This document shows positions 20,151 through 63,131 of a stretch of 64,000 nt of DNA, piece by piece. The notes under the pieces were generated by a model, which ran no database searches, was not told the DNA's origin, and saw only the letters and a list, made by a program, of their open reading frames with translations. Made by a program: the position numbers and the translations under genes. Origin of the DNA: Intoshia linei. Its lineage: Eukaryota; Orthonectida; Rhopaluridae. Where the stretch lies: NCBI GenBank assembly GCA_001642005.1, contig LWCA01000015.1, forward strand, positions 23,165-87,164, read 5' to 3'. The first letter of the stretch is position 1, and every line of letters begins with the position of its first letter.

Positions 20151-22659
20151 TTAATCTTTACTATCATTTTTTTTTTTTATGTCTTCTAGGCAAATATTTT
20201 TAGTTTCGGGTAGTGTAAATACAACAACTGATAATATTATGCTACATAACACAGCAAAAATGTATAGGATATTGTATTTGGATGTAATTTGGGTTAAATA
20301 AGGATATGAAAGAACAACAAATAAGCTTATCAACCGGTTGATCAATGTAACAATCGAACATAATTCGTCTTGAATATTTGAAATTAATAATTCTGATAGC
20401 ATAATCTAAATTTGAAATGAGATTAAATGAATAATATATAATATATCAACTATGTCAATATCAATAGAGTTTTTGCAATATTTTACAATTTTTGAAGCCA
20501 TCTCCCTTAAGACTTCAAATTTAAATAATTAAACATTCTATAAATTTGTACATTAAAGTATTCCATTTTTAATCTATATCACATTTTAAATTATAGAGTA
20601 GTGGTATCCAAACCGTGCACCGTAACGCTCTAGTGTGTCGAACCGATCCGGCTCGAGGCCACCGAAAAAGAAAAATAGATTTCAAAAAAATTTAAATTCA
20701 ACACACAAAATATATTTAAGAATGCAAATTTTATAATGTTCAAATTGGAAATTTTGTTAGGTCCGGTAGGTAGAGAGGTCTCAGAAATTTTGTAAAATTG
20801 TATTTTTTAAAAAAATATTCGAAAAAAGGAATTTTATCCCTTACAGGTTGGTAAAATTGCATTAAGTATTTTCACGTAAGGTTTGATAAAATCGCAATTT
20901 TAAAAAAAATTGGAAAAAGTGTATTTCTCCCTTAAGGGACGGTAAACTTGGATTTTTTCTATGTTGGGTTGGATTAAGTGGTTTTTTCCTTAAATTTATA
21001 AAAAAATATTTAATAAAATAATAATAATATTATTAAAAAAATATTCGAAAAAAGCATTTTTACATTAAGGGTTGGTTTAATTAGATTTTTTTTTTATGGT
21101 TGGATTAAGAGATTTATTCTAGCCAGTTTAGTAAAAACGGATTTTTTAAAAAAATATGCAGTGGATTTCTCCCTTAACCTTTTCACTGTCTTTGTATTCT
21201 ATATTATACACAGCATAATTTTGAAAAGCTTTATTTTTTTATTTTCATACATTTTCTTAGGTAATTTAAAAATTTTACAAGTTTAAATTAAAACATAAAT
21301 TCTAGACAATGAAAGGGTTAAGGGTTGGTAAATTAGGATTATATCTTTTGGAGTTGGATTTAGTGGTGTTTTCTCCTAAATATTATTAAAGTAATTCCTG
21401 AAATAATACATTACTTTAGCCGTGAACCCCTTTGAGAATCACTGCTCTAATGTACACTACAAAGAGTAGTATAATTTATACAAATTTAAAATTAGTTGAA
21501 TTACCCATGGTATTTGATTAATTCCCATGCAAAAGCTAATTATATAAAAGGATACAAATAGTACTATAATCCATGTATGGCTGTCATTAAGTATGGAAAA
21601 AGATTTGAGATGAAAATAAAATCCCATAGACATTAGAGATAATATTACTAATACAGAACTGATCAAAATGAGAGGTCTTCTACCAAATCGGTCTATAAAA
21701 AAGGCACTGAATATGCTAGACAACATTTGAACGAATCCAATAAAAATGAGAGGAAATTGAGTGTTGGTATACCCAGCCGTAATGAATATTTCTGATGAAT
21801 AACTGATAAAAACGTTGATTAGAGAAAATTGCTGTATGGCATGAATACATAAACACGCCATTATATTTTTTAATAAATATGGATTTTTAATGGTACGAAA
21901 TTTTGACCAAAAGCCATCCGTCTTGTTTTGTACGGCTAAGGAATGTAGTATTTTATTTTGTTCTTCTATTGCAGTTTGTTTTGAATTCCTGAGCCACATG
22001 AGTACCTCCATTGATTTATCCACTTCATTGTGTCGAATTAACCACCTTGGACTCTCCGGGATGTATAGAGTAAAAAGTATTGCAGGTACAAGCATTAATA
22101 TCGCCAACATAGAAGTGTATTGCCAAGATATAAAGCTTCCAACCAAGTAAGTAGTAAGAATTCCGAAACTTATCCCCAATCCAATGCTATATCCAAAAGT
22201 TCCTCTAATTCTCTCATGAATACATTCGTTCATATACACTGGTAAAATTAATAGAATCATAGATAAGGCACAACCAATCAAGAATCGAGATAAATACAGT
22301 ACAATGTACGCCCATCTAATTGGAAAATATTCAGATATTATTGTCAAAAACCAACAATAAGTCATAAGCAATATTATTAATATTATAGTTGGTTTTCGTC
22401 CGTATTTGTTTGAAAATTTTCCTGCCAATGGACCCCCAAAAATACAACCAATAGTCAAAAATGACGTATACATTGGACTAGTTTTGTTATTTAACAGATC
22501 CATTTTGATCAAATTATTAAGAAAAGGAGACGTAAATGCCACTCCAATGCCAACCACAACACTACAAATAAATGATGTCAACATTAAAATTAATTGAGAT
22601 TTTATTTTTCCCTTGTCTGCTGATTCACTCTCTGTTGTAGTAGTTAGGGTATTGTTCAT
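20151..22659 (-). CDS. SLC2/trehalose-transporter-like MFS sugar transporter
   Basis: Twelve-helix facilitated sugar transporter. Exon 1 (22659-21505) has GKFSNKYGRKPTIILII (first loop RXGRR/K-type signature), LYLSRFLIGCALSM, NECIHERIRGTFGY, YIPESPRWLIRHN after helix 6, IDRFGRRPLILI in the second half, and MGINQIPW at helix 10. A 1.1-kb intron (20406-21504) follows. Exon 2 (20405-20151) continues IMLSELLISNIQDE and LCSIVTLINRLISLFV and ends with VVVFTLPETKNICLEDI, the family PETK signature. The splice joins PW to IML in phase. The frame is open upstream of the ATG at 22659 to about 22740 (YGVDNNTFYSLDEERGGG) with a possible acceptor, so an extra 5' exon is possible. The sugar substrate cannot be told. 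Confidence 0.88.
20594..21450. mobile_element. hAT-like modular repeat in the transporter intron
   Basis: Left end AGTAGTGGTATCCAAACCG; right end CCCCTTTGAGAATCACTGC, whose reverse complement resembles the left end. Inside are four or so decayed modules of the type ATTTTTTAAAAAAATATT, GGAAAAAG, TCTCCCTTAAGGG, GGTTGGATTAAG. It fills most of the 20406-21504 intron. Confidence 0.6.
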
Positions 22660-23959
22660 AATATCTTCGAATATAATAGACCCACCACCTCTTTCTTCGT
22701 CGAGACTATAAAAAGTATTATTATCAACTCCATATGTGTCTAAATTCGAATCAAATCAATTTATAATGTTTCTAAAGAAAACCAAATAATGCACGCTTTT
22801 ATGATTAAAAATGCAATTTCGCACTGTTAAAATTGAAAACGGTCATTATTTATATATACCTACACTCTCATATTTCTTTCTGTGCATTATATTTTATAAA
22901 ATATAGAATGAGAATCAATATTTGCATTCACAATAAAGTAACGAAGTACAATTCAATTCTGAGCCTTGCCGAGTAAAACAAGCAGTGACGGATCTAGGAT
23001 TTTCAACTAGGGAAATAATTATTAGGGGATAAATGCATATAATGTATTATATTTATTAAATATTATATCTATAATATCTATTTCTATTTTTTTCTAGTTT
23101 ACATTCTACTAAATTGTTAAATGTTGAACATTCTACTTGTTGAGTTGTTCAACTGCATCAAAATCGACATTTTCGGCAAGTTTTCTATCGATTATGAACA
23201 ACGTTAATCTTAACAACACCCACGCATTAAATTTTATATAAACAAATCATATAATGCAGTGATTCTCAACGTGGTCCATGTGGACCACTATATATATGAG
23301 ACTATAATTATAGTGATATACTTTATAAGGATAAATTTACTTGTAAAAAATTTTTCTATTTTATAGTGATATAAGTTGAAGTTTCAAGAGTAATTTTCGG
23401 AGAAAAGATAATTTTATGGAAAGCTGTGATGGCGTTTTTAAAGTATAAATATCATTTAAAAAAAAAATCCTTGAACCATAATTATTTTACAAAATTTAAA
23501 AAATATAGACGTAAAGACAAAAATTTCTATCTTAGAGATAATTTTAGCGTAATTAAATCAACTGAGTAAAAATTTGGAAGGAAAAAATGTGACAGAATTA
23601 TCCAAAATTAAAAGCTTTTCAGGATAAATTAGTGTTTTAAACTTTTTCTCTCATGTCTTTAAAAATTCCATAAAAATGGTTGTAACAAACTTACCAGGTT
23701 GTATATCCTTACTTATATAACACTGCCCACCACCAAAAACATCCAAGGATGTTGAATACATCATCTTTTTTGTCTTAATGAACCGGTCAACGCTATAATA
23801 ATATTATTTTTTAATCACGTCCAGATTTTTTTTTTAATTGACGGTAAAGTCAAAAATAGGGGGTTTTCAAAACCATCTTAAACACAATTAGAAACGCCAA
23901 GTATGTATTTTATATAGCATCATACATATATAATGTATTAATTAATGTTATAATATATT
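22660..23959. other. Gene-free region with repeat fragments
   Basis: Holds a CAGTGACGGATCTAGGATTT fragment at about 22983, typical of hAT element ends. A second hAT-like end lies at 23256 (CAGTGATTCTCAACGTGG). At about 23706 there is TCCTTACTTATATAACACTG, the Helitron 5' sequence running into the CACTGCCC repeat described next. No exon recognised. Confidence 0.4.
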
Positions 23960-24549
23960 TTTTTCATATATTCCGCTACATTTTGTTCAATAGTATTCAA
24001 TTCTGTTAATAATTTCGTAAGTTGTAACGCAAAGATTTCTTCTTTCTAATCATATATAATAATCCATGTATGTACTTTATTTAACATTTCTATTGATTTT
24101 CAAATATGCCCATTTTAGGCACCTTTTCGAACTTTGGGCGTATTTTAAAAAAAATCTGGACGTGATGCAGAAACACTGATTATACCATCTTGTTCAGAAT
24201 ACAAATCTCTTTCAGGTGCACTAAATTTTATTCTTGCACCTCAAAAAAGTTGTTATTTTGTTGGGCAGTGTAATCTTTGACATTTAAACTTTGGTCGGTA
24301 TTTATTACACATTATACGTTTTTATCAATAAATTATATTTTTATATGCTTCCAATGTTAGCATTTTAAAATTGAAATATTTTGTTTCAGTTTTAAAAATC
24401 AGCATTGTCTCGTAAGTGTTAAAAAGCCTTTATTACGTATTTTGTTGAAATGATATAATTTTGATGATTCCACCCTAAAGTTCGACATTAAATAATTTAA
24501 ATTAAAATTAAATTTTACGTCAAATGATGCTGATTATAATCAATCCGAT
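23960..24549. repeat. 590-base exact duplicate, left copy, ending at N gap
   Basis: Identical base for base, without indels, to 35136-35725 as far as I can read it; the offset is a constant 11176. The copy ends at the base before the N at 24550. The stretch contains a likely transposon end on the minus strand (ATTACACTGCCCAACAAAAT at about 24254-24273). Confidence 0.9.
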
Positions 24550-24550
24550 N
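24550..24550. other. Assembly gap (single N)
   Basis: One N joins two contigs. Sequence on both sides belongs to the same repeat family, so order and distance across the gap are doubtful. Confidence 0.95.
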
Positions 24551-24866
24551 ATGTTATAATATATTTTTTTCATATATTCCGCTACATTTTGTTCAATAGT
24601 ATTCAATTCTGTTAATAATTTCGTAAATTGTAACGCAAAGATTTTCCCTTTGCAATCATATATAATAATCCATATATGTATTTTATTTAACATTTCTATT
24701 GACCTTCAAATATGCCAATTTTAGGCACCTTTTCGAACTTTAGGCGTATTTTAAAAAAAATCTGGACGTGATGCAGAAACACTGATTATACCATCTTGTT
24801 CAGAATAAAAATCTCTTCCAGGTGCACTAAATTTTATTCTTGCACCTCAAAAAAGTTGTTATTTTG
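24551..24866. repeat. Diverged copy of the gap-flanking repeat
   Basis: Matches 23943-24265 with about ten or more substitutions, then changes to different sequence at TTGCAATGTAATACTG. It shows that the repeat family is present in at least three places and is not only an assembly overlap. Confidence 0.8.
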
Positions 24867-24867
24867 T

Positions 24868-25990
24868 TGCAATGTAATACTGTATGCTTTGTTTGTGTGT
24901 GTGTTATCGTTTATTTTAATAACTATCAGTCTTAGAATTTTATAAAATCCCCATTTCCATTACAGTTTTTTCCGGGTATTAGTAAAAAAATTCTGAACCT
25001 CCCAAACTCACATCTTATGGGTCAAAAAGTCCAATTGTACTTTTTTTAAAAATCAAAAGAGTTCGAGAATTTAAAAAAATCTATACTTTCATATCGATTT
25101 TAAAATCATAAATTTAAATTTAAAAAAAATCTATCTTCAGGACCAAAACCACAAATTACCTTTTTTTTTAATGAAAACAGCTTTAGAATTTAAAAAAATT
25201 TACAGGTGGTACAGATGTAACCTGTTAACATATACAAACAATTTCAATCTGAATAAGTGACGCGGTCAAAAAAACATTTTAGTATTCATATATTTTTTTT
25301 CCTAAATATTTTATTAAAACCAAAAATGTGTAATAATTAACTGTGCGAAAAGTATAAAAAAGAAAAGATTAGTCTGTTAGAGCTTATTCCAGCTGATATA
25401 AATAAAAAATTTGAAACCCAGAAATCTACGCATTCCCGGTTAAAAATAATTTTTAATATATTATTAACCAATATTTTTCAAATATTTGGATTAAAATAAA
25501 AATTCAAAATTTAAATATTGATCCTACAAATTCAAAAAAAAGTGTGCATTGAACGTCTACACATGTTCAATAAAGAAATATGGGTAAAAATCTATATTAT
25601 TTATTCGTTAGGAATTTTTTTAATTGCTACGCAATTTATAAAACTTAAATATCATTTTCAAAACATTTTGTTTAAAATTTAAATTAAAACTACAACAACG
25701 GATTACTAAAAGTAATACAACTTTGTTATTATCATTTTTATATTTATTAGGTAATCTACAAAAAAGGCACACATTTATAATTAGTAATTATATTTTATTA
25801 ATTACGTACTTATGAAATACTTATTAATGATATCATCAAAATATCACACTTGAGACTTGAGACTGTTAATGTTTATTTGTCAATTATAATTATAATAAAT
25901 GTACATTTAAATTAAAATAGTATTTTTTAAAAATAAAATTTCACTTGTTAATTAACATTTAGATATGGATATATACTTCAGCTAATCGGC
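24868..25990 (+). mobile_element. Helitron-family fragment
   Basis: Begins ATGCTTTGTTTGTGTGTGTG, the family 5' sequence without the TCC start, and continues with the four internal modules (TTAGAATTTTATAAAATCC, AGAATTTAAAAAAATTTAC, GTGACGCGGTCAAAAAAAC, TTATTCCAGCTGATATAAAT). No 3' hairpin was found. It lies between the gap and EXOC8. Confidence 0.6.
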
Positions 25991-26209
25991 ATTTGGTAAA
26001 TGTTGGTTTATGGTGGTCCACAAAAAATTAAGAATAAAATATGGTCCACAGCGAAAAACTGGGATTTTTAAATATACGGTAACGCAGATTCACTTTTATA
26101 AAATAAATGATGTGCGACGTAGATTGTAAGAGTTCTCTGATTTTGTATTGTATTTTTTATAATTCTAGGATTGATTAATTTATTTTTAATATTAAAAAAA
26201 GTATAATTG

Positions 26210-26402
26210 AGGTTATTGACCTTGAAGGACTTAATTTCTGAAAATGAAATTTGCGATAAAACATCCCGCTCGATAAAACTGTACTAGAAAGATGGAACTT
26301 TTAAAACTCGACCCTCTTACTTTCTTAAATAAACTGAACAAACAAATAATTAAACAGACATACATTTTTAACTAAATTACTTTATGTAAGTAAGGATTTA
26401 CC
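26210..26402 (-). mobile_element. Helitron 5' end fragment, minus strand
   Basis: Read on the minus strand from 26402 it begins TCCTTACTTACATAAAGTAA, a variant 5' end shared with 49847 (+). The following sequence (GTTTTATCGAGCGGGATG on the minus strand) is similar to 41385-41520. It marks a subfamily. Confidence 0.5.
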
Positions 26403-26758
26403 GTTATAAATTTTAAAAACAATTTACGGATAAAAACATTTTTACCGGTAATTTACTGGTAAATTTTTGTCGATTGCTAACACTAGTTTCACTTTTATAA
26501 GATGAAAAAGTATTATTAGCCTATACATTTGTAAGTGTATATTTATTTGGTGAAGGGGTGCGTGAGAAAATATTGTAACTTTGTAGTTCGCCATTTATTT
26601 GAGGAAGCCCTTTTTAAATACACAAGTGCAATTTTTAAGTACACAATAGTTTCAACTTGAAATATGAAACTTTCAAGGAACATTCATTGAATGTAAATGT
26701 AAATATCGATGGAAACATATATTAAACTATTTGCTTTACACGGTAACTATTTAAATTG

Positions 26759-28753
26759 ATGAACGAAATAAATTCTGTGGTATCAAAAGATGGGTTTGAC
26801 CCCACGGAATTCGTGACAAAGTTGGCTATATCTGGAGTGAGCAGTGTGCAAGGTTTTCTAGATTTACTAAAAGAAAATTCGGAAAAAAACAAGCTACATT
26901 TAAAAAAAAATATTTACCAAAACTTTGATTTGTTTATAGACGGAGTAAAAGATGTATCTGAAATGGAATCAATTCTATATAATTTGAGTCATAAACTATA
27001 CGATCAAAAGAAATTGTTGGATGACATATCTAGTCTACTTTTTGAGAAAAAACCTTTAAAAAAAGAGACTATAAAAAAGGAGAGGTTACCATTAATCGTT
27101 GATCAAATCTGTAATTTACCAAAAAAGAGTATATTTGATTACAACAAAATTGAATCTGAAGCAGATTTTGTAGAATTGAAAAATATAAATTTTATTCCAA
27201 TTCGTAAAATACACGCAATTTTATTGATCGATTGTATTGTCATTTTAACGCGAAATACAACTTCCAAAAACAAAAAAATGTACTGCTTTGAAGAATGCCT
27301 AGAACTTCAATCCCTAACAGTTTTCAATGTCACAGATTCAAATGTCACGAATAACACAATTAGAATTATTAAAAATGAAGACAATAAAATTTATCAATGT
27401 CCAAATTCAGATGTTAAATCCTTGTGGATAAACAAGATTAATACTTTACGAAAAAATCTTTTGAAAAAGTCGAATGTGAACCTAAATTTTAATCATCCCA
27501 ATTCTAATCAACCCGAAGAGCTAATTCAAAATGAAAAAAATGACGTCTATTTTAGTGACATTGACGGTAACAATTTCCAAACAATTGTTAACTTTTTACA
27601 AAATATTGATGTTATCATTGCTCACAAAAAATATAAAGAGGCTGTCGACATTGTACTCTCTGTAACTGATATCTTGCAGAAATCAAATAAAATTCCACTT
27701 ATGGTTGAACATGAAAATAAAATTGAACTTGTAAAAAACCAAATTATCAAACAATTATCGGCTGAAGCATTTTTTAGCCCGGAAAGGTGGTCTAGAGCCG
27801 GCACCGAAAAAGATTCTATTCAGGCTATTATTTTGCTGTGCCGTCTCAAACGTTCTTCTCTTGCCGCATCTTTATTTTTACGCGCTCGTTCCACTCAAAT
27901 TGATTACAATCTCAACATTATAAAAATTGAAATTAGTTTTAAAGTTCACGTTGAAAATCTCGTTAAAATGTTTTGCAGCAATATGGAGCTTTATTTTCAT
28001 GATTATATGAATCTCTTCAAAAAAGACTATCCTTGTCTCGTCTCAGATTTCATTGTTTGGACTCAAGAACAGTTAATGTACTTTGTGTATAGATTCAGTA
28101 ATTATGTCTTGACAATTAAATCGCCCTACCCTTTGGAAGTTATTGTTTCACTTGTTGTCAACTTGCGAAATCGAGTTGAGAATTTCCAAATCTTTGGATT
28201 AAACGTTATTCACATTTTCGATGAAATTATGGCACAACCGTTATCAAATTTCATCAATTGTACAAACAGGGTTAACCTTGAGAAATTTAACGTTTTATCA
28301 TCAAAAATTAAACGTAATTGTTTCAAATCCGAAAAAAATAAAATCAGATTCGAAAACATTCTCAACAAATTTGGCATCAAACTTAAAACAGATTATTTTT
28401 TAACACATAAGGATGTTTTCAGTACGTACCTTACAGAATACATTATATCCCTACTCAAAATTTATATTGACATGGTTAACCTTTCAATTAAAACTTATAA
28501 TCTTTCTATTCATTCCCACCTCAAACATAATTTAAATCTCATTTACAACCGGTTTGTGTCTTATTTAAGACGTTTATTCAGAGAATACGAGAAATCTAAT
28601 CAGGAAGTCCAGAAAATTATCAAAATTAATTGCACCTTTTTCATTTCTCAACTTCAACCTGCTGTTAATCGTATTCTATTATACAATATTAATTATTCTT
28701 TGATTGACGAAACCAATTTGGATAATATTAAAGATTTCTTTGAAATTAAATAA
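26759..28753 (+). CDS. EXOC8: Exocyst complex component 8 (Exo84)
   Basis: Subunit of the octameric exocyst that tethers secretory vesicles to the plasma membrane. A single exon of 664 codons from the ATG at 26759. The N-terminal Vps51/Exo84-type helical region (residues ~10-95) has EFVTKLAISGVSSVQGFLDL and ISSLLFEKK. A PH domain follows at ~140-230 (FIPIRKIHAILLIDCIVILT, then WINKINTLRKNLL). The Exo84 C-terminal cullin-repeat-like region spans ~250-640 (VNFLQNIDVIIAHKKYKEAV, FSPERWSRAGTEKDSIQ, LCRLKRSSLAASLFLRAR, YRFSNYVLTIKSPYPLEVIV). It converges on PIP4P, with 53 bases between stop codons. The gene is intronless here although its neighbours have many introns; vertebrate EXOC8 is also single-exon. 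Confidence 0.93.
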   Translation: MNEINSVVSKDGFDPTEFVTKLAISGVSSVQGFLDLLKENSEKNKLHLKKNIYQNFDLFIDGVKDVSEMESILYNLSHKLYDQKKLLDDISSLLFEKKPLKKETIKKERLPLIVDQICNLPKKSIFDYNKIESEADFVELKNINFIPIRKIHAILLIDCIVILTRNTTSKNKKMYCFEECLELQSLTVFNVTDSNVTNNTIRIIKNEDNKIYQCPNSDVKSLWINKINTLRKNLLKKSNVNLNFNHPNSNQPEELIQNEKNDVYFSDIDGNNFQTIVNFLQNIDVIIAHKKYKEAVDIVLSVTDILQKSNKIPLMVEHENKIELVKNQIIKQLSAEAFFSPERWSRAGTEKDSIQAIILLCRLKRSSLAASLFLRARSTQIDYNLNIIKIEISFKVHVENLVKMFCSNMELYFHDYMNLFKKDYPCLVSDFIVWTQEQLMYFVYRFSNYVLTIKSPYPLEVIVSLVVNLRNRVENFQIFGLNVIHIFDEIMAQPLSNFINCTNRVNLEKFNVLSSKIKRNCFKSEKNKIRFENILNKFGIKLKTDYFLTHKDVFSTYLTEYIISLLKIYIDMVNLSIKTYNLSIHSHLKHNLNLIYNRFVSYLRRLFREYEKSNQEVQKIIKINCTFFISQLQPAVNRILLYNINYSLIDETNLDNIKDFFEIK

Positions 28754-28806
28754 CAGCAAATATAATTTTATTTTAATTTTACATTATTTACAAATTTTCT
28801 CCAAAT

Positions 28807-31800
28807 TCAGATTCGTCCTGTTACTTCACTTTTAGCCATTCTAATGTAGTAAAGAGTTATCCACCCAAGAAAGATGAATCCACTTAGCAAAACTAAAATA
28901 AATGTTCAAATTTTCTTGTAAAAGTGTTTCATATGGGCATCTGCAGATCTGAACATACCATTCTCGAGGCAGCTAAAATAAAATATGCCCTTGAAAAATT
29001 TTCGAAATTGAAAATACCAGATATCCTAATCACCTCTAAGGCTTACAGTTTATATTTAACACATACAATAGTGAAGTTACTGAAAAATATAAATATTTTT
29101 TAAATTTTAAATTTGCAAATTGAGGCCCGAGGAGGGGATAGGGCGTGGTTCTCAATTTTTTTTGGCCGTAAAATGAAAAAAGTCGTAGCATAAATTCTGG
29201 GATAATTTTTAAAATTATAAGCATTATCATAAATGGAAATATAAAAAAAGTTCATTTTCACGGTTAAAACCACAGAATACTTTTTTTAACATTGAAACCA
29301 GGCCTAAAATTTAAAAAAAATTACAGCTGATACAGTTATATCCAGTGAAAACACAAAAAATTTCAATATGACAAAGTGACGCCTTCACCATCAAAAAAGC
29401 ACTTTAATATTCATTTTTTTAAAAAAATTAAAAAAGTTCGCCCTCGACAGAGCTAGGATGCTAATATAAGCTCTACTCTATCCGTTAATGTTGTTAAATT
29501 AAACCTATCCATAATATTATCAAAAAAAAATGTGTTTTAATGATTAATCCAGTGGTAATCTAAATTAATATTATGATTATAACAAAAAACTAACTAGAAA
29601 TGCAATTAGAGCAGCACTGTAAATTAGCAAAACAATTGTGTAAGCACGTCTTTTTTTTGAAAGAAAAATTTCGTTGACAGATGATCTAAATATTTGTCTG
29701 ATTTCACCTAGTAGAATAAACAATATCATGGTTTTTGACCATTAATTGGAGGCGTTAGTAGACGAGGTTTACAATTCTGACTTGTTTCTGTATGTTAACT
29801 GGGAAATGCTGCATTAGCTCTGATTTATTTAAAATCCTAGGACTTTATTGTTCAAAATAATGTGTCATTTGAAGTTTTGAACGAAAGACGTAATTTTCAA
29901 ATACTTAATAAAATTTATGAGACTGAATTGGCCCTGAAAACTGTATTAAAATGAGTGTTTATAAAATTCAGGGACTTAAGGCTTTATTTAATTCAGTTAA
30001 AAAAAAAAAAAGTGTAATTTGTCTTACAGGTCTGACAGTAAAAACGCAAATTTCAGAGATTTTTAGTTACTTTGTACGCCGGAAAAAACTTAGGGTTAGA
30101 ATTTGTGTTTTTTAAATTTCTGGACTTTCAGCTTTCTAAATATATTCTTACACAGACAGATACACAGTTTTAGTAACTTTTATTTTATGTACAATTTAAA
30201 AATAATAAAGAAAAAATATTATAATTACAATTTTTTGCAATGGGGACACTTGGCTAAAGATTCTTGATTTGAGTCAAACTAAAAAATAAAATTTATATTA
30301 CAATACATAAGGCTACAGTCCTAGCCAAAGAAAATTTAAACATTCTTAAAAATGAAGGAATCACCATAAAAAGATTCTAAATTATCACGACGTAGTGCGT
30401 CAATTTGTAAAATTTTATTTGTAAATGGTCGCTTTTGTAAAAGATTTTGTTATAATTATTTTAACCAAACTTTTAAAGAGTTTTTAAGATTTTTTTTAAC
30501 ATAACTTTTAAGAGAGTTTTAAGATTCTTTTTTTAACCAATTTTTAAAACTTCTTTTTTTAATGAAAACAGCCCTAGAATTTCGAAAAAATTACAGATGG
30601 TACAGTTGTATCCTGTTAACCCACACCAAAATTTGTAATCCGAATAAGTGACGATTTCACGGTCAAAAAAGCATTTTAGTATTCATATTTTTTTTCCTAA
30701 ATATTTTATTAAAACAAAAAATGTGAAATAATTAATATTCCGAAAATTAAAAAAAAAAATTATTCTGATAGAGCTTATTCCAGTTGATACAAATACGAAA
30801 GTTAAACCCAAGAAATCTACGTATTCCCGATGAAAAATAATTTTTAATATATTATCAACCAATATTTTTCAAATATTTCGAGTCTAGGTCCTGTTTGTAC
30901 GTAGTACATAACAGTCAACCTAGTTCTTTATATGACTCGCCATTTTTGGTATTCTTGGGATCTCGCCGCGAGATAGAAAATTTAAAACTATAGCAACAGC
31001 AGATAAAACCTTTAAAATTTAAATTGCAATAAAATGTAAATTGTAATACAAATTGTAAAATTTAACATTAAAATCTATTTTATCTAAAAATCCATTTTTA
31101 CAACTGAAATTAATTAATTATTTTTTAATTAATAAATATATTTTAATTAAAAAATGAATTTTCTAAATAGTAAATCAGCAATTAGAATAAAATATAAAGA
31201 CAATTTTCTGTAAGCGTCTGAAATCTTATTAAATCTTTAAGTTTTCTTTTTCGATTTAGAAGCATTTTAAATTTCAACGTGATTTAAAACGTAACTAATT
31301 TTGATAAATGGTTTTAAAACTTTTAGTTTTATATTTTAAATTAATGGCTGGATATAAAATAAAATCTTGACTTTACAAATTGACGTATACTCATCATGAA
31401 ATTAAAAAAATTGTGGTTTAAAGCAGGCATTCTCAACCCTTTTTCGCTGTAGACCCCCAAAAAAATTAATAATAATGAAAATTTTTAATTAATCATTACA
31501 TTTGAGTGAAACGAATGGTGGTCAAAAGACATGGAGTACTCTATTTTTGCAAGGTGATAAACTTGATGAACTATTAATATTAACCTTTAACCCGTCAATG
31601 TTCCCAAAATGGAACATGTTTTTCAGCTATTGTTTACGGTACATTATTAATTGTTTACTACATATTTTATCAGATCAATAAAAAGTCTATATTATCTGTC
31701 TTCCCTGTGAAGAATTAATATTTTATATCCCTTGGTTGATGTTTCATAGAATCATGAATATTGACTGATTTTTTGTCCCATTTTCAATTTGAAATTTAAA

Positions 31801-32767
31801 GTTTTTTTTATGACTAGAAACTTACTCGGTCATAAATTTTAATAAAATAATTAAATAAAACCGCTGCTTCTAAAATAGAACAGTGGAGGTTTCCCAATAA
31901 GTTTTTATACTTGTAAGTAATTTAATTTAATACCAAAGAATTTACTTTTACATGTGATGATGAAATGTCATGATTTTTACGTTTTATATTAGTATTTCTA
32001 AGCCTCTATGTTTTAAAAACGACTTTATGTTACTGAAAATGTCTATAATATGTAATAAATGTATATAATTTTCATAGACCCCGTTGAGAATGGCTGGTTT
32101 AAAGGATATGTTGAATATTATAAAAATCGTACCAAGAAAACATCATGACAGTAAAAGCAGCAAACTCTAAAATATTCGCCATCTTCTCTGGGTGATCCGT
32201 GCGGTATATTTACGACAAGCCCACTAAAAATATATTAAAGCATCATGTATATTTTTTATAATTTAAAAAAATGACATAATTTCATAAAGGACCAAAAAAA
32301 CTTAATTGTATACAATGTATATAACTGAATCAGCTTATATAATTGATATATTTAATTGATAATTATATAAACATAAAATACCATCCTTCACGAGGACAAA
32401 CTATGCAACGTGAAGTAGTTTTACACACAAGTAGACATTTACAAAAACATCTAATGTAGCATTTTCCAACAGGCGCTGATCTAATTGCCTTAAAAAGGTA
32501 AAATTATAGAATGTATAATTACTGTGCATTCTTTACAGTTATCACAATTAACGACATAATAATAAGGTCTATCAACCAAACTTATATAAGATTGACACAC
32601 TTCGCATTGGATGAGAGGTGTCCCCAAAGCGGCAGTGTTTAACAAAGGCGTTGTCTCATTTGCATCGATTTGTATACTTTTGTGAGACTCTGCAGAATGA
32701 CATGATTAAAAAATCAAAAATGGTACAAATGCTTTAAAAATAATGATATACCTTCATTTGCAATCAT
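28807..32767 (-). CDS. PIP4P: PIP4P/TMEM55 family protein (putative PI(4,5)P2 4-phosphatase)
   Basis: Endolysosomal membrane protein. Exons joined in phase read [20 protein letters not shown] (from 32767), then [20 protein letters not shown] and [10 protein letters not shown], then [20 protein letters not shown] and [12 protein letters not shown], then [14 protein letters not shown]. After a 2.4-kb intron (about 29742-32143) come [20 protein letters not shown] (TM1), [18 protein letters not shown] and [20 protein letters not shown] (TM2), then a stop at 28807. The zinc-binding CxxC pairs match the family. The family's active-site motif CX5R (human CKVTSQR) reads CKTTSRC here, so the Arg is missing at its expected place. 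Two introns contain hAT and Helitron insertions. Confidence 0.9.
29230..29475 (+). mobile_element. Helitron fragment in the last PIP4P intron
   Basis: Internal modules (GCCTAAAATTTAAAAAAAAT, TACAGTTATATCCAGTG, GTGACGCCTTCACC) run directly into GCCCTCGACAGAGCTAGG, the beginning of the 3' terminal hairpin, which is then broken. Confidence 0.55.
30530..30923 (+). mobile_element. Helitron fragment with intact 3' hairpin end, PIP4P intron
   Basis: Two internal modules are followed by GTCCTGTTTGTACGTAGTAC, the hairpin return arm, and ACCTAG at 30918-30923, then T. This copy has lost the long segment that normally separates modules and hairpin. Confidence 0.7.
31424..32096 (+). mobile_element. Complete non-autonomous hAT element in a PIP4P intron
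   Basis: Termini CAGGCATTCTCAACCC and, at the right, GTTGAGAATGGCTG. It is flanked by a perfect 8-bp duplication GTTTAAAG at 31416-31423 and 32097-32104. It has no coding capacity. It is homologous, in reverse orientation, to 36821-37409. Confidence 0.92.
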
Positions 32768-33674
32768 AATTATTTCGGTTAAATTTTACTGAAGTGATGA
32801 ATATTAATGTTTACATAATAAAGTTTAATTTTATTTTCAAATGTTGAATTAGCGCTTAATTATCTTTGACGGATTAATATTTTTCATTTATTGAAGATTT
32901 ATTTCTGTTTTACAATATAATTTAATCATTCAAATTTCAATTTGACCAATACTATTGGTAATATTTATTATTACATTTTATTGATAAATTCAAATTATTA
33001 TTTACAAAATTATGTTAACTTTAATCTATGAATCCTTAATTTTAACGTTATGAAGGTCGACTGATAAGATAGTAATCATTTTTTCATTATGAAGCCATTA
33101 ATTAATCTTACTAATCCCGTTTATTTTTATTTATGAAATTTATAAATGAATACATGTAATCTAAAATGAGAAATTAATGTTATGATGGGGCCTTCTTTAT
33201 ATCGTGGACCCCTTTGGGAAGCACAGTTTTAGACCCTTTGAATATAAAATTATAAGGAATTTGAATTTGAAGTTTATTTTAAAAAATAATTTATCGTTTT
33301 ATTTTTTTTAAAAATAGATAATCTCATACATGTATAAATAGACTAGGAATCAACCATCCAGTAAATGTCACCACTTAATGCACACATAATATAGTTTTAC
33401 TTGGACATATGCGTTTTGAACTTTAAATAATATCAATTTACCAGCATTAAATACTGTGTATTTTAAAATCTTAATATTATATCAGAAATACTTTATGGAA
33501 ATGGAAGAAATTTTAAATTGTAGTACAATGTGTACTTAAATTAAAATAAATTTTTGAATTGCGTAAATTAATTCTAGAAAAAATTTAAAAAATTAATAAA
33601 TTCATTTATAATTATTTATACAGGTGTTGTATATGTTAACTTGATTTTTTATAGATTTTCCAACTCCGTTTACT
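32768..33674. other. Intergenic, divergent between PIP4P and a small membrane protein gene
   Basis: AT-rich; no exons recognised. A CGTGGACCCCTTTGGGAAGC sequence near 33202 (to about 33228) resembles the inner end of hAT elements. The upstream regions of both genes must lie here. Confidence 0.35.
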
Positions 33675-33929
33675 ATGAAAGAAGAAGACACACATTTGTT
33701 AGTGGATGAAATTGAGATACCACCGAGTTACGCTAGTATGTGGTTTTTTTAGTTATTTTTGTCAGTAGATAATCTTTTTATTTTAGCAAACGAGGTAAGT
33801 AAATCTACATTGTCTCAAGCAACTACCGTCAATTGTAAATTTTGCAATAATTGTCAATTGGTTACATGCATATTTCTCGTTTGTTCTTTGTGTAACTTTT
33901 TTCTTATAATTATATCTTTTTCAGTTTAG
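33675..33929 (+). CDS. Small single-pass membrane protein, unidentified
   Basis: Two exons (33675-33735 and 33787-33929) join in phase across a 51-base intron to give 67 residues. An acidic start MKEEDTHLLVDEIEIPPSYA contains PPSYA (PPxY-like, a possible WW-domain ligand). A Cys-rich patch follows (NCKFCNNCQLVTC), then a hydrophobic segment VCSLCNFFLIIISFSV at the very C terminus. It resembles small endolysosomal adaptor-type membrane proteins in layout only; no family is recognised. The first exon may have upstream non-coding sequence, since ACTATG follows an AG acceptor at about 33653. Moderate trust that it is a gene. Confidence 0.5.
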
Positions 33930-34119
33930 GGTTATGAAATCCCATAGCAGGTTGTCAACATTTTATATTGTTTAAACTACCTATATTAGTGGCCTGTTAA
34001 GGACCGAATTAGCCTCCATAAATTTTTATTAGATTATAACCTTTTTCATACATATTCGCCACAATTTTCCACTATATTACATTGTCATTTTAAAAATGTA
34101 TGAAATTGTTAATGTACGG

Positions 34120-34362
34120 CAGTGCTTTCCAACCATTTGAAGTTTTTTTCACCAATTTTTTGTCTCATAATTGGTTGAAAAAAACTATCCTAAAAACCCT
34201 ATCAAATTTTTGACCCACAAAAATTAATTTGATGAATTAGTTAACTCGATGATTATGTCGCTCTACGAAAAAATATATCCCGCCGTAGATGAATAATTTA
34301 ATATTTTGGAAAAATTTGACACTTTAAAAAATGGTTGGAATCCAACACTATACTATTAAAAT
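34120..34362. mobile_element. hAT-like MITE
   Basis: The left terminus CAGTGCTTTCCAACCATTTG is mirrored at the right by AAAATGGTTGGAATCCAACA. A target duplication is not evident. It encloses a piece with CTCGATGATTATGTCGCTCT that belongs to the 17162-type TIR element. Confidence 0.6.
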
Positions 34363-34499
34363 ATTTTTAGTAATTGCATATATTGTCTATTTGGCCTACA
34401 AATGGCTTCAAGGCTAAATTCCACCTTACACCGGATTTTTTGTTCATATATTAAATAAATTTTGTTATAAAAATTTCCAGTTTATTTACAATTTAAATT

Positions 34500-34812
34500 T
34501 TATATTCTTAAATTTTTCCAATTAATGGTAGGTTTCCTGTTGACGTATTCTATGCATTCTATTATATCATTTGTTTTGACTTCAATATCACCATGCAAAA
34601 TGATACCACATTCATTTCCAGAATTAACTTGTTTTACCTCGTCTTTGAAGTGACGCAAACTGACTAGTTTCCCTAAAAATTCAATGAATTATTATTTTTT
34701 TCAATTTGAAGTTTTCAGGTTATTTCAGAATTTCAACGATTAAATTACACTTTTTGCACCGGTCATGATTACAACATTTCTTACGATAAGGGGAGTTTAT
34801 TAATCGGGGGAA
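34500..34812 (-). CDS. MTIF2: Mitochondrial translation initiation factor IF-2, last exons only
   Basis: The final exon (34672-34500) reads KLVSLRHFKDEVKQVNSGNE, CGIILHGDIEVKTNDIIECI and a stop. This is the conserved C-terminal beta-barrel of IF-2 (human SLTSLKHHKDDI ... TGMDCGLSL ... VGDRIVCYEE). A probable preceding exon (34812-34749) joins in phase. IF-2 needs some 600 further residues, including the GTPase domain, but none lies upstream before the N gap at 35135, and none is seen beyond it. The gene is therefore cut by the gap or is a truncated copy. Confidence 0.8.
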
Positions 34813-34835
34813 CTGAAAATTTTATTTTTTAACAA

Positions 34836-35134
34836 TCCTTACTTATATAATATGCTACGCAATATTTGTTTGTGTGTTCCACTTTATTTAAATAACTACC
34901 AGTCTTAGAATTCTATAAAGTCCACATTTCAATTAATTTTTTCCGGGACATATAATAAGATAAATTTTAACCTTCCAAACTCACATCTTACGGGTCAAAA
35001 ACCCCAATTGTCCTTTTTTTTTGAAAATCAAGTTGGAGAATTTAAAAAAATATATATTATTATTTAAATATTTATTAATATTTAATATTATAATATATAT
35101 ATAATATTTATTTTATATTATTAATAATTAATAA
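34836..35134 (+). mobile_element. Helitron 5' part, cut by the N gap
   Basis: Starts after an A with TCCTTACTTATATAATATGC, followed by the first internal module (TTAGAATTCTATAAAGTCC ... CTTACGGGTCAAAAACC). It then degenerates into TA-rich sequence and stops at the gap. Confidence 0.75.
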
Positions 35135-35135
35135 N
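35135..35135. other. Assembly gap (single N)
   Basis: Joins the contig ending in MTIF2/Helitron sequence to a contig whose first 590 bases equal the end of the contig before 24550. Confidence 0.95.
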
Positions 35136-35725
35136 TTTTTCATATATTCCGCTACATTTTGTTCAATAGTATTCAATTCTGTTAATAATTTCGTAAGTTG
35201 TAACGCAAAGATTTCTTCTTTCTAATCATATATAATAATCCATGTATGTACTTTATTTAACATTTCTATTGATTTTCAAATATGCCCATTTTAGGCACCT
35301 TTTCGAACTTTGGGCGTATTTTAAAAAAAATCTGGACGTGATGCAGAAACACTGATTATACCATCTTGTTCAGAATACAAATCTCTTTCAGGTGCACTAA
35401 ATTTTATTCTTGCACCTCAAAAAAGTTGTTATTTTGTTGGGCAGTGTAATCTTTGACATTTAAACTTTGGTCGGTATTTATTACACATTATACGTTTTTA
35501 TCAATAAATTATATTTTTATATGCTTCCAATGTTAGCATTTTAAAATTGAAATATTTTGTTTCAGTTTTAAAAATCAGCATTGTCTCGTAAGTGTTAAAA
35601 AGCCTTTATTACGTATTTTGTTGAAATGATATAATTTTGATGATTCCACCCTAAAGTTCGACATTAAATAATTTAAATTAAAATTAAATTTTACGTCAAA
35701 TGATGCTGATTATAATCAATCCGAT
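35136..35725. repeat. 590-base exact duplicate, right copy, starting at N gap
   Basis: Same sequence as 23960-24549 with no difference found. The match begins at the first base after the N and ends exactly where the left copy meets its own N. Confidence 0.9.
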
Positions 35726-35950: not shown

Positions 35951-36720
35951 GTACATCCTTTACTAATATAACATTGAATGTCTGTATCTGTGTGTTACCG
36001 TTTATTTAAAACATTAACAATCCTAGAATTATAAAACACAATTTTAATACATTTTTCTTATGTTGATATTTCCCATTTTAAAATGTAATAAAATCATTAA
36101 CCTCATCGTAAATCTCAATCTCAGAAATTTATAATTACTACAATGTAGATCAGTGGTTCCCAAAGTTGCCTACAAGAAAAGTTTTAAATAAAATAAATAA
36201 AAGTTAACCTTTTTTCACAATAATATTAAATTAGAATATTATTGATTATTATTAATAGTGAACGTAAACATTATAAATTAAGTTATGATTTACTGATATG
36301 TATATAACGTGAATAATTTTCACGTGCGTTAAATTTAATCTATGCACGATTTAACTTGGTTATATAGTAGTTCCCACAATCGAAGTACATTTTTTTTTAT
36401 TTTTTTATTTGTTAGCTATTTTATTAAAACAAAAATATTCAATAACTAATGGTCCTAGAATTTTTTAAAAAGAAAATTATTCTGATATAGCTTATTCCAG
36501 TTGATATAAGTACAAAATTTCAAAATCAGAAATCCAGGGATTCGCGGTCAAAAATAACTTAATATATAATGAACCAATATTTTTCAAATTTTTGAATTAA
36601 CATTAATTAATTGTAAAATAAAAATTTAAATATTCATCATACAATTTCAAAAAAAGTGGAAACTCACCGTATACGCATTTTAAATACAGAAATATGGTTT
36701 CAATCTACTAAATGAATTCC
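35951..36720 (+). mobile_element. Helitron-family fragments
   Basis: A variant 5' end, TCCTTTACTAATATAACATT at 35951, is followed by GTGTGTTACCGTTTATTTA. Internal modules lie at 36425-36720 (AATGGTCCTAGAATTTTT, CTTATTCCAGTTGATATAAG). A hAT-like end (CAGTGGTTCCCAAAGTTGC at about 36152) intervenes. Confidence 0.5.
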
Positions 36721-36820: not shown

Positions 36821-37409
36821 CAGCCATTCTCAACGGGGTCCCCAGCACTTTTTTGGGGGTCCATGAAAATTATATACATTTATTACCTATTATAGACATT
36901 TTCAGTAACAAAGTCGTTTTTAAAACATAAAGGCTCAGAAATACTAATATAAAACGTGATTAAAATTTATGACCGAGCCAAGTTTCTAGTCATAAAAAAA
37001 AGCTTTAAATTTCAAATTGAAAATGGGACAAAAAATCAGTCAATATTCATGATTTTATGAAACATGAACCAAGGGATATAAAATATTAATTCTTCACAGG
37101 GAAGATAAATAATATAGACTTTTTATTGATCTGATAAAATATGTAGTAAACAATTAATAATGTACTGTAAACAATACCTGGAAAACATGTTCGATTTTGA
37201 GAACATTGACGGGTTAAAGGTTAATATTAATAGTTCATTAAGTTTATCACCTCGCAAAAATAGAGTACTCCATGTCTTTTGCCAACATTCGTTTCACCCA
37301 AATGTAATGATTCTTTAAAAATTGTCATTATTATTAATTTTTACAGGTCCACAGGTTTTATGTAATATCATCTTAGGCGTCCACAGCGAAAAAGGGTTGA
37401 GAATGCCTG
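36821..37409 (-). mobile_element. Complete non-autonomous hAT element, second copy
   Basis: Termini CAGCCATTCTCAACGGGG (left) and GGGTTGAGAATGCCTG (right). It is flanked by an 8-bp duplication CTGTATAG at 36813-36820 and 37410-37417. The body is the reverse complement of the 31424-32096 element with small deletions. Confidence 0.92.
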
Positions 37410-37439
37410 CTGTATAGGGCCTACTGCTGGCTCTCCGGC

Positions 37440-39444: not shown

Positions 39445-40591
39445 ATGGTTAGATATAGCGTACTACCCAAGAATCAACAAAATAGTAAATTTTGATTTTA
39501 ATAAATGTATAATATCAAAATAATTAACAATATAGTTGTAAAAGCTAGAATTTCAAATGCACGTGTTCATTTTAAGGTATAGTTAAAATGCATTAAATGT
39601 CAGATTTTTGTCAATTTATATTTGATTTGATGAGATTTTAATTTAATACTTAGAATACTCGCGAAACAGCCAATGCTATATCCAATATGAATTTAAAGCA
39701 GGCTATGAAATATTTGAACGACGTTAAAGAATATAAACGGTGTGTTCCATTCAGAAGATATAATGGTGGTATTGGAAAATGTTCTCAGGTTTTTTAATTT
39801 TTATTATATTTAATATATGCATATTAGGCTAAAGAATTTAAGCATTCTCAAGGTAGATGGCCTCAAAAGAGTTTAAAATTTTTGTTGGATCTGTTAAAAA
39901 ATGCTGAAAGTAATGCTGAAAACAAGGTTATTTTAAAAACTCTAAAATAAAAATGGTCAGCTTTTTTGGGGTATTTGTCCAAACTTTTTCGTCTATCTCT
40001 GCGTTTCCCAATGCGGGTTCTGTGGCTGCAGGTTCAGAAAATTTTAAAATATCCATTCATTACCTTTTAATTTGCAGGGTTTCAATTGCTGGTAAAATGC
40101 TATTTACTCTATGATGTGAACATTGAGCGTTTTTGCATGTTTTTAATAAATTTTTCAAATTAAAAATGGTATCTACTAGCAATAAGGCTTTTTAAAATAA
40201 ACCACATAAAAAAACGTGACATTCTATTACACCCATATTACATCATTTCTTTGCGTCACCTATGAGAAAAATTGACGAATTATATATTGCAATTAAATAA
40301 ATGTATTAAATATTTCTTTATAGTACTTTAATTTATGTAAAAATTAAAAATTTTAGGGTTTAGACACTGATCGATTGAACATAAAATACGTTCAAGTCAA
40401 CAGAGCCGCCACCCTTAGACGGCGAACATTTAGAGCTCATGGAAGAATTAATCGTAATATTTCTTTGACATAATTCATGGTATTTAGCTTTTATCAGCCA
40501 TCCTTGCCACATTGAATTAATGTTGGAAGAAGAAGACGCCGGCGTTTCGAAGCCAAAATCAAAAGTTAGAGAAACTGCTATTAAAAATTAA
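39445..40591 (+). CDS. RPL17: Ribosomal protein L17 (uL22)
   Basis: Large-subunit protein lining the exit tunnel. Six exons in phase: [46 protein letters not shown] with [36 protein letters not shown] and [33 protein letters not shown] and [31 protein letters not shown] to the stop. The 34-base last intron uses the acceptor TATTTAG (40492); a later AG would give a premature stop. The C-terminal tail is shorter than in vertebrates and lacks most of their Lys-rich end. The intron at about 39931-40356 is longer and repeat-like. Confidence 0.96.
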
Positions 40592-50801: not shown

Positions 50802-52233
50802 TATAAATCAATAAATATAAACTTTATTGAAAAATTTTAAACATGGTACATTTTTTTAACCCTTTGAGGAATACATTACACATATACATGTAAATTCAAT
50901 TTCACGAAATTTATCCATTTTACTATTTTATAATTGGTTTTTTGGATTAAATGTTTTGGTCAACCGAAAATAAAGGGTTTTTTACATTAATTTTTTAATA
51001 ATTAGAATGATTGAATTTTTATTTTTTGATATATTTTACCATATTGTGTCAATATCTCAAAGATGTAATGATGAAATAAGCAAATTTCACGTTTTACGTA
51101 TACAGCGTATGGTATACGTATATACGTTAGGGTGTTAACTTTTTTTTAAATCAAAAATACAGGGTACTACAGGGTGAGAAATGTACACTTCAGAGTCGTG
51201 GTATAGTTTTTTAAGCTTAGATTTTGAAAAAGTCCGGCCATTAATTTATTTTAATTGTATTTACCATAGTTTTTATTTTTATAATTTGATATAAGTTGGT
51301 ATAATGTAAGGGTTCCGCTTCTTGTAATTGAACTTACCCTTTTTTTTTTTTAATGAAAACAGCTCTAGAATTTAAAACTTTTTTACGGGTGGTACAGTTG
51401 TATCCTGTTAACACACACAAAAAATTTCAATCTGAATAAATGACTCTTTCACGTTCAAAAAAGCATTTTAGTATTCATATATTTTTTTCCTAAATAATTT
51501 ATTAAAACAAAAAATGTGAAATAATTAACGGTCCGAAAATTAAAAAAAAAAGATTATTCTGATAGGCTTATTCCAGTTAATATAAATACAAAAGTTTAAC
51601 CTGAGAAATCTACGCATTCCCGATGAAAAATAATTTTTAATATATTATGAACCAATTTTTAACCCCAGAAATCTACGCATTCCCGGTGAAAAATAATTAC
51701 AATGCTTTGCAATGTTGCTAAAATTCCCGAAATATGTTTTTAAAATACTAATTCAGATAATTATTGATACAAAATTGATATTTTTTACTCATTGAAAGCA
51801 GATACTGAATATACATATATATATATATATGTATTAATATCTTTAATTAAGGTGAATTGTTTTTAAAATTCTTTACACCAACGTTAACAAAATAAAATTG
51901 CATTGTAATAATTCACTTTAAATTAAAAATTAATGTGATATGACGGATCCATGCGAAACAAGTTTAGGAACCACTCCTTTGAAGGATTGATTATAGTGAA
52001 TAGTAACATTTATAAGTTAGATTTTCTTATTAAATTTATTTTTATGGTAGAATTAAAAATATTATTATCTCTTGAAAGTTTGTTAAAGATTTTGTTTTTT
52101 TCAAAATTCTAGGACTCTTAGTATTCAAACTTGTAATCAAAGATAATTAATTTAAAGATATTTTTTCAATTTCGTGTCATTTCATTATTGTTTGTATAAG
52201 ATTTGAATAAAATTTATTTAATATAAACTGAAG
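50802..52233 (+). mobile_element. Gap between PGAM5 and M6PR with Helitron fragments
   Basis: Internal modules lie at 51340-51690 (TACAGTTGTATCCTGTTAAC, TTTTAGTATTCATATATTTT, ATCTACGCATTCCCGATGAA; the last is duplicated at about 51670). The family 3' segment is at 51840-52060, without the hairpin. 50830-51330 shows no feature except GTATACGTATATACGTTAGG near 51112. Confidence 0.5.
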
Positions 52234-59735: not shown

Positions 59736-60038
59736 AAATGACCTTTATCGTACACTCAGCATACTAGAGAAAGCAAATCTTACAGTTAAACCATCAAAAT
59801 GTTCAATAGCAACAAAATAATTCAAATTTCTCGTACATATAGTTAATCAAGACTACATAAAAGCAGACCCCGAAAAAATTAACTCAATATTAAACCTACC
59901 AGCTCTAGAAAATATTAAATCTATTCGACGCTTTATAGGAATGTGCAACTATCAATCTAAATTTATAAAAAATTATGCAAAAGTAATAACTCCACTTCAA
60001 GAAATGTTAACAACTAAATCCACATTCACTTGGACTAA
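59736..60038 (+). pseudogene. Ty3/gypsy reverse transcriptase fragment (part 1)
   Basis: [20 protein letters not shown], then a stop, FLVHIVNQDYIKADPEKINS, FIGMCNYQSKFIKNYAKVIT and STFTWTN: the RT thumb and connection of a Ty3/gypsy pol. It is broken at 60038 by a Helitron and resumes at 62730. It abuts the hAT remnant on the left without visible ends. Confidence 0.85.
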
Positions 60039-62729: not shown

Positions 62730-63060
62730 TACACGTATAGTCTTTTAAACAGCTATTACTTACTGAAGCGCCTATACTAACTTTCCCTGACCCCAATCAA
62801 CATTTTATACTGGAAACTGACGCCTCAGACGTCGGAATCGGTAGTATATTACTATAGTAAAGCTCTTTCTCCGGCTCAACGTAATTACTCAACAGCAGAC
62901 AAAGAATTAACTGCTGCATCCACTTCAATTAAAAAATTCCGCCACCTACTACAAGGAAAACACTATAGGGTCATCACCGATCATAATCTTTTTGTCCACA
63001 TGGTAAACTCAAAAAACTTATCTAAACGACAATTGCGTGACAGCATTATTGATCATTCAT
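62730..63060 (+). pseudogene. Ty3/gypsy pol fragment (part 2, RNase H)
   Basis: [38 protein letters not shown] (RNase H Asp), frameshift, SKALSPAQRNYSTADKELTA (catalytic Glu), STSIKKFRHLLQGKHYRVIT and DHNLFVHM. Continuation of 59736-60038 across the Helitron. Integrase and LTRs were not found. Confidence 0.88.
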
Positions 63061-63131
63061 TAATATTGATAATATCAAGTAATAAGACATTACAGAAAAT
63101 TTTTATAATAAAATAGTATAGTAAATGTTTT

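What the first reader, a model, noticed from the sequence alone, without database searches (positions are those of the whole stretch)
23960..35725. 590-base exact duplication bounded by both N gaps points to a scaffolding error
23960-24549 and 35136-35725 match base for base. The left copy ends at the N at 24550 and the right copy begins at the N at 35135. Repeats seldom end exactly at contig edges, whereas overlapping contig ends do. The contigs before 24550 and after 35135 may really be adjacent, with the 10.6-kb piece holding EXOC8, PIP4P and MTIF2 wrongly placed between them. The alternative is a true repeat of recent origin, since a diverged third copy starts at 24551.
Basis: partly seen in the sequence, partly recalled or inferred. 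Interest (0 to 1): 0.75.

Follow-up and report, generated by a model that had tools for sequence, protein, structure and literature searches.

The report
Misplaced contig creates false DNA duplication
A 590-base stretch appears twice in this animal genome most likely because assembly software put a 10.6-kb piece in the wrong place, which also cuts a mitochondrial protein-making gene in two; this is an assembly error rather than biology.

Summary
Window 23960-24549 and 35136-35725 match at 590 of 590 bases, each copy cut by a single N. The copies consist of 316 bp of a dispersed element, E, and 274 bp, B, found at full length nowhere else in the held assembly.

The 10,584-bp middle piece (24551-35134) carries only the last exon of MTIF2. 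The preceding exons lie on another scaffold, C1312, and run off its right end. Of 13 animal MTIF2 proteins, all match C1312 and 12 also match the middle piece, always further downstream; in 6 the second match starts within 3 residues of where the first ends. Splice sites and phase fit, and the exon was found once in the assembly. Both contig ends also lie in consecutive parts of one high-copy repeat. So the middle piece most likely belongs, reversed, after C1312.

Direct adjacency of the left and right contigs is then the simplest reading of the dovetailed overlap, but no reads could be checked. The main rival keeps left-middle and blames the left contig's tail. Ordinary assembly error: low interest, useful correction.

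The parts
23717..24275 (+). Copy of dispersed element E in the left contig (ends CACTGCCCA in inverted orientation, TAA on both sides); its last 316 bp are inside the duplication
23960..24549 (+). Left copy of the exact 590-bp duplication; end of the left contig
24276..24549 (+). B: 274 bp found at full length only here and at 35452-35725 in the held assembly
24550..24550 (.). Single-N gap between left contig and middle piece
24551..35134 (+). Middle piece (10,584 bp), inferred to be misplaced; most likely belongs reversed after the right end of scaffold C1312
24551..24878 (+). Third, diverged E copy at the left edge of the middle piece (94.8% to the left copy; first 76 bases identical)
26756..28753 (+). 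EXOC8-like gene (VPS51_Exo84_N and Exo84_C domains)
32363..32705 (-). PIP4P (TMEM55)-like exons: Pfam Tmemb_55A at 41.4 bits (above the cut-off of 30) for one and 29.1 bits (just below) for the other
34500..34672 (-). Last exon of MTIF2 (IF-2 model positions 533-586); its upstream exons are on C1312:28200-30213 (+)
34831..35056 (-). Fragment of high-copy repeat M in the MTIF2 intron; the adjoining part of M is at the right end of C1312
35135..35135 (.). Single-N gap between middle piece and right contig
35136..35725 (+). Right copy of the 590-bp duplication; start of the right contig, beginning inside E

Best explanation
This is a scaffolding error that leaves a false duplication. The left contig (element E, then B) and the right contig (starting inside the same E copy, then B and onward) overlap by 590 bp and are really adjacent. 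A 10,584-bp contig from elsewhere was placed between them. That contig begins with another copy of E and ends in another high-copy repeat, and it belongs in reverse after the right end of scaffold C1312, where it completes MTIF2. Contig ends caused by repeats, and ambiguous pair links, probably misled the scaffolder. Shown by sequence: the overlap, its single-copy part, and the two halves of MTIF2 with matching splice phase. Inferred: the reversed join to C1312, direct left-right adjacency, and the cause of the misplacement.
For: Exact dovetail: the duplication ends at both N bases. 274 bp of it is found nowhere else at full length. The IF-2 model hits C1312:28311-29495 at positions 3-388, and positions 533-586 only in the middle piece; the other 8 of 10 matches lie within positions 73-306 on other contigs. 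The exon's 62 residues were found once in the assembly. Of 13 animal MTIF2 proteins chosen from the 120 listed, all 13 match C1312 and 12 match the middle-piece exon, downstream in each; in 6 of these the C1312 match ends within 3 residues of where the middle-piece match starts, e.g. 592-640 then 640-691 of a 695-aa protein; no other stretch of C796 matched. Donor GAAG/GTATTC (exon ends at C1312:30213) and acceptor TTTTTAG/GGAAAC (exon starts at window 34672) give a phase-1 intron reading Y-E-G-K-L-V. C1312 is 31,008 bp long, so it ends 795 bp into the intron. The C1312 end part and the middle-piece end part follow each other in one orientation in 10 of the 10 repeat loci that hold the former, out of 15 examined.
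Against: No reads, mate pairs or independent assembly were available. Left-right adjacency rests on the overlap alone; no gene was found that crosses it, and the true left neighbour of the middle piece was not found. Repeat M has thousands of first-look candidates in the assembly (3211, of which 40 were scored), so two contig ends in M can fit together by chance. Loci L062-L067 were chosen because they match M, so they are not independent; in L051, L053 and L056 the middle-piece part occurs without the C1312 end part. One of 13 MTIF2 proteins did not match the middle-piece exon, and in 6 of the 12 that did tblastn left a stretch unmatched between the two. Pfam gave the exon only a match below cut-off (GTP_EFTU_D4, 13.7 bits against 23.8). 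Two links in the scaffold must be false under this reading, against one under the main rival. Sequence absent from the held 34.65 Mb was not searched.
Confidence: 0.83

Rival explanations
1. Left contig and middle piece are truly adjacent, as scaffolded, and the middle piece then joins C1312. Only the link from the middle piece to the right contig is false. The last 590 bp of the left contig were wrongly grown through E into the flank of a different E copy, that of the right contig.
For: The left contig and the middle piece share 76 bases exactly at the start of the middle piece, so a wrong turn there would be invisible. Only one false link is needed. TAA flanks fit both partners.
Against: It needs an additional false extension of 590 bp that enters single-copy B. 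The two halves of the left contig's E copy are 90.8-94.2% (left) and 91.6-95.4% (right) identical to the other copies compared, with no clear mosaic; C50 is its closest relative on the left and its most distant on the right, but C50's right half is distant from all copies. This test is weak.
Confidence: 0.12
2. True recent duplication of 590 bp on both sides of a correctly placed 10.6-kb segment.
For: Exact repeats do break short-read assemblies, and the copies lie on one scaffold.
Against: The right edge of the middle piece continues into C1312 by gene structure and repeat structure. Within the right copy, E starts abruptly at the N.
Confidence: 0.03
3. The MTIF2 exon in the middle piece is a displaced paralogue, and the true last exon of the C1312 gene lies on a contig not held here.
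For: Not every part of the genome need be in the 34.65 Mb held.
Against: The exon is open, in phase with fitting splice sites, found once in the assembly, and starts at the residue where C1312 stops.
Confidence: 0.02

Closest known systems
False duplication in genome assemblies (Genome Biol 2022;23:205, PMC9516828; search listing, passages)
   Same: Identical sequence twice on one scaffold, beside assembly gaps, with no sign of a second real copy.
   Different: Here the two false copies flank an unrelated misplaced contig. Read depth and k-mers, used in that paper, could not be examined.
Misplaced contig in a scaffold through repeat-caused links (general knowledge, no paper used)
   Same: Both edges of the piece lie in repeats: E on the left, M on the right.
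   Different: The software and libraries used are unknown to me.
Element E: probable non-autonomous DNA transposon (MITE) with inverted ends CACTGC and 3-bp TWA target duplication
   Same: CACTGC at both ends and matching TAA or TTA flanks in the 5 complete copies examined; CACTGCCCA at both ends in 3 of the 5.
   Different: No search for a transposase was made. The resemblance to CACTA-type elements is recalled, not tested.

Membership tests
False duplication (unmerged contig overlap) | Identical sequence ends exactly at contig edges on opposite sides | tested here: met
   left copy ends at N 24550, right copy begins at N 35135
False duplication (unmerged contig overlap) | Shared sequence otherwise single-copy | tested here: met
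   274 bp found at full length in these two places only; the E part is dispersed
False duplication (unmerged contig overlap) | Read depth of one copy shared over two places | not testable with these tools
   no reads available
Misplaced contig | Gene structure continues to a different scaffold | tested here: met
   MTIF2 split between C1312 and the middle piece
Misplaced contig | Pair or long-read links contradict the placement | not testable with these tools
   no reads available
Real segmental duplication | Each copy continues into its own unique flank on both sides without a gap | tested here: not met
   each copy is cut by a gap on one side
CACTA-like MITE (element E) | Inverted ends beginning CACT with short target duplication | tested here: met
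   5 of 5 complete copies (window left copy and loci L005, L006, L007, L036); L004 had no recognisable left end where I looked and was left out, and the copies cut by contig edges were not counted
CACTA-like MITE (element E) | Mobilised by a CACTA transposase | not tested
   no transposase search made

The most novel reading that the evidence does not exclude
The scaffold is right and MTIF2 is physically split between two chromosomal places, its two transcripts being joined by trans-splicing.
Probability: 0.01. Interest if true: 0.6.

Novelty: not a real feature. Interest (0 to 1): 0.12.

Why it matters
As assembled, the scaffold shows a false duplication, a false gene order (sugar transporter, EXOC8, PIP4P, RPL17) and a broken MTIF2. 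Moving the middle piece would complete MTIF2 on C1312 and keep this locus out of counts of recent duplications or gene-order change. The method, testing a suspicious contig by exons that run off its edge, needs no reads and may be of use elsewhere.

Tried and rejected
True repeat by transposition of E: rejected as the source of identity, because the E copies compared differ from each other by about 3-9% in the right half, while here 590 of 590 bases agree and 274 of them are outside E.

Target-site duplications to decide the left contig's true partner: uninformative, since left contig, B and middle piece all carry TAA, as do C470 and C242.

Mosaic test of the left contig's E copy: left half 90.8-94.2% to 5 copies, right half 91.6-95.4% to 8 copies; no clear signal either way.

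Genes crossing the left-right join: none recognised. The sugar transporter exons (20151-22755, minus) and the RPL17 exons (39654-40473, plus) lie away from it. I did not search every short open frame near the join.

Survey of other single-N gaps for the same pattern: not done.

EXOC8 homologue search returned only the window's own protein, so it gave no synteny and did not name the organism. An early guess at the organism (an orthonectid, searched for, listing only) was recalled and not tested; I make no claim on it.

Paper search on single-N gaps listed nothing that I used; one search listed the false-duplication paper of which I saw passages.

Full report
Observation. The window holds two N bases, at 24550 and 35135. 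The stretches 23960-24549 and 35136-35725 are identical over 590 bases, and the identity stops at the first N on one side and starts at the second N on the other. This is the geometry of two overlapping contig ends. A third copy starts at 24551; it is 94.8% identical over 330 bp of E, and its first 76 bases are identical to 23945-24020.

What the 590 bp are. A search of the window's own assembly (34,653,042 bases in 1319 contigs) listed 47 matching stretches for 23900-24549, with 40 of 60 candidates scored, so a lower bound. None of the stretches outside this window reaches beyond base 24290. The family, here called E, extends left to about 23717. Five complete copies examined have CACTGC in inverted orientation at both ends and the same TAA or TTA on both sides; a sixth, L004, had no recognisable left end where I looked and was not counted. 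Beyond E, the remaining 274 bases (B) occur at full length only at the two places in this window; eight further hits are 59-70 bp at 84-89%. E sits at other contig edges too: C470, C72 and C242 start inside it and C887 starts with its left end.

The decisive test. The middle piece, 24551-35134, carries an EXOC8-like gene, PIP4P-like exons and, on the minus strand near its right edge, a 62-residue open frame that matches the end of IF-2. The IF-2 family model finds positions 3-388 on C1312:28311-29495 and positions 533-586 at C796:57688-57849, which is in the middle piece (36.5 bits, E 4.9e-8); the other 8 of 10 matches lie within positions 73-306 on other contigs. Pfam gave the same frame only a sub-threshold match, 13.7 bits to GTP_EFTU_D4. 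A search with the 62 residues finds this one place only. C1312 is 31,008 bp long, so its MTIF2 gene runs toward the scaffold's right end. From the 120 proteins listed I chose 13 animal MTIF2 proteins and compared them by tblastn with C1312:22000-31008, the three parts of the window and C796:1-23164: all 13 match C1312, 12 of 13 (not P0018) also match the middle piece, and none matches any other part at E 0.01. In all 12 the middle-piece match is downstream of the C1312 match. In 6 (P0006, P0012, P0015, P0021, P0023, P0044) the short exon at L031:8070-8216 is also matched, and the two matches then meet within 3 residues: 592-640 on C1312 and 640-691 in the middle piece for a 695-residue protein (P0021); 631-679 and 677-731 for a 735-residue one (P0006). 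In the other 6 a stretch of homologue between the two stays unmatched. The exon on C1312 ends ...TATGAAG/GTATTC and the exon in the middle piece begins TTTTTAG/GGAAACTAGTC, which reads Y-E-G-K-L-V in phase 1. So the two are most simply one gene whose intron is interrupted by the two contig ends.

The intron. The last 216 bp of C1312 and the reverse complement of the middle piece's right end (window 35056-34831) are both parts of a high-copy repeat, M, with thousands of first-look candidates, of which 40 were scored per search. Fifteen loci with M-related sequence were examined. Ten hold the C1312 end part, and in all ten a middle-piece part follows it in the same orientation: in eight over 220 bp or more and 59-129 bp further on, in two (L049, L055) as short pieces directly after it. 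In three others (L051, L053, L056) the middle-piece part occurs without the C1312 end part, and L050 and L052 show neither in full. Six of the fifteen loci were chosen because they match M, so this describes the repeat rather than being an independent test. It does explain why both contigs stop here.

Conclusion on placement. The right edge of the middle piece most likely belongs, in reverse, to the right end of C1312 and not to the sequence after 35135. That makes the scaffold wrong at 35135. Whether it is also wrong at 24550 is less certain. Under the main rival, left and middle are adjacent and the left contig's tail was grown into the wrong E copy; the 76 identical bases would hide such a turn. 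Comparison of both halves of the left contig's E copy with other copies shows no clear mosaic. Target duplications do not decide. The true left neighbour of the middle piece was not found. I put the full reading at about 0.83 and the rival at about 0.12.

How it probably arose (inference). E and M broke the contigs, and pairs placed in repeat copies linked the middle piece to the wrong neighbours. The unmerged overlap stayed because a piece lay between the two contigs. One-base gaps suggest that the software expected touching or overlapping contigs; that reading of the N is recalled and not from a call. C796 has only these two N in 87,164 bases and C936:1-80000 has none.

Relation to what is known. 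False duplications beside gaps are well described; I saw passages of PMC9516828, not the whole text, and only the listings of searches. Nothing here is new biology.

Noticed in passing
C1312:28200-31008 (locus L031:6201-9009): MTIF2 lacking its last exon at the right end of scaffold C1312; most likely completed by window 34500-34672, minus strand.
   Followed up: yes
window 23717-24275 and locus L005: Element E occurs in a short form here and in C602; C50, C78, C977 and C1290 carry extra sequence between its two halves.
   Followed up: partly
window 24888-25683, 30549-30881, 36399-36598, 51346-51674, 60337-60663: Copies of parts of the high-copy repeat M, with thousands of first-look candidates in the assembly.
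   Followed up: partly
window 31419-32082 and 36856-37414: Inverted pair, 75-96% complementary over six arms, one side in the middle piece and the other in the right contig; probably two copies of a transposable element.
   Followed up: no
window 59821-60090 and 62781-63116: Open frames that look like reverse transcriptase and RNase H fragments of a retrotransposon (by eye and recall).
   Followed up: no
window 39654-40591, plus strand: Exons of ribosomal protein L17 in the right contig: Ribosomal_L22 at 31.3 bits (above the cut-off of 28) for one exon and 18.9 bits (below) for the other.
   Followed up: partly
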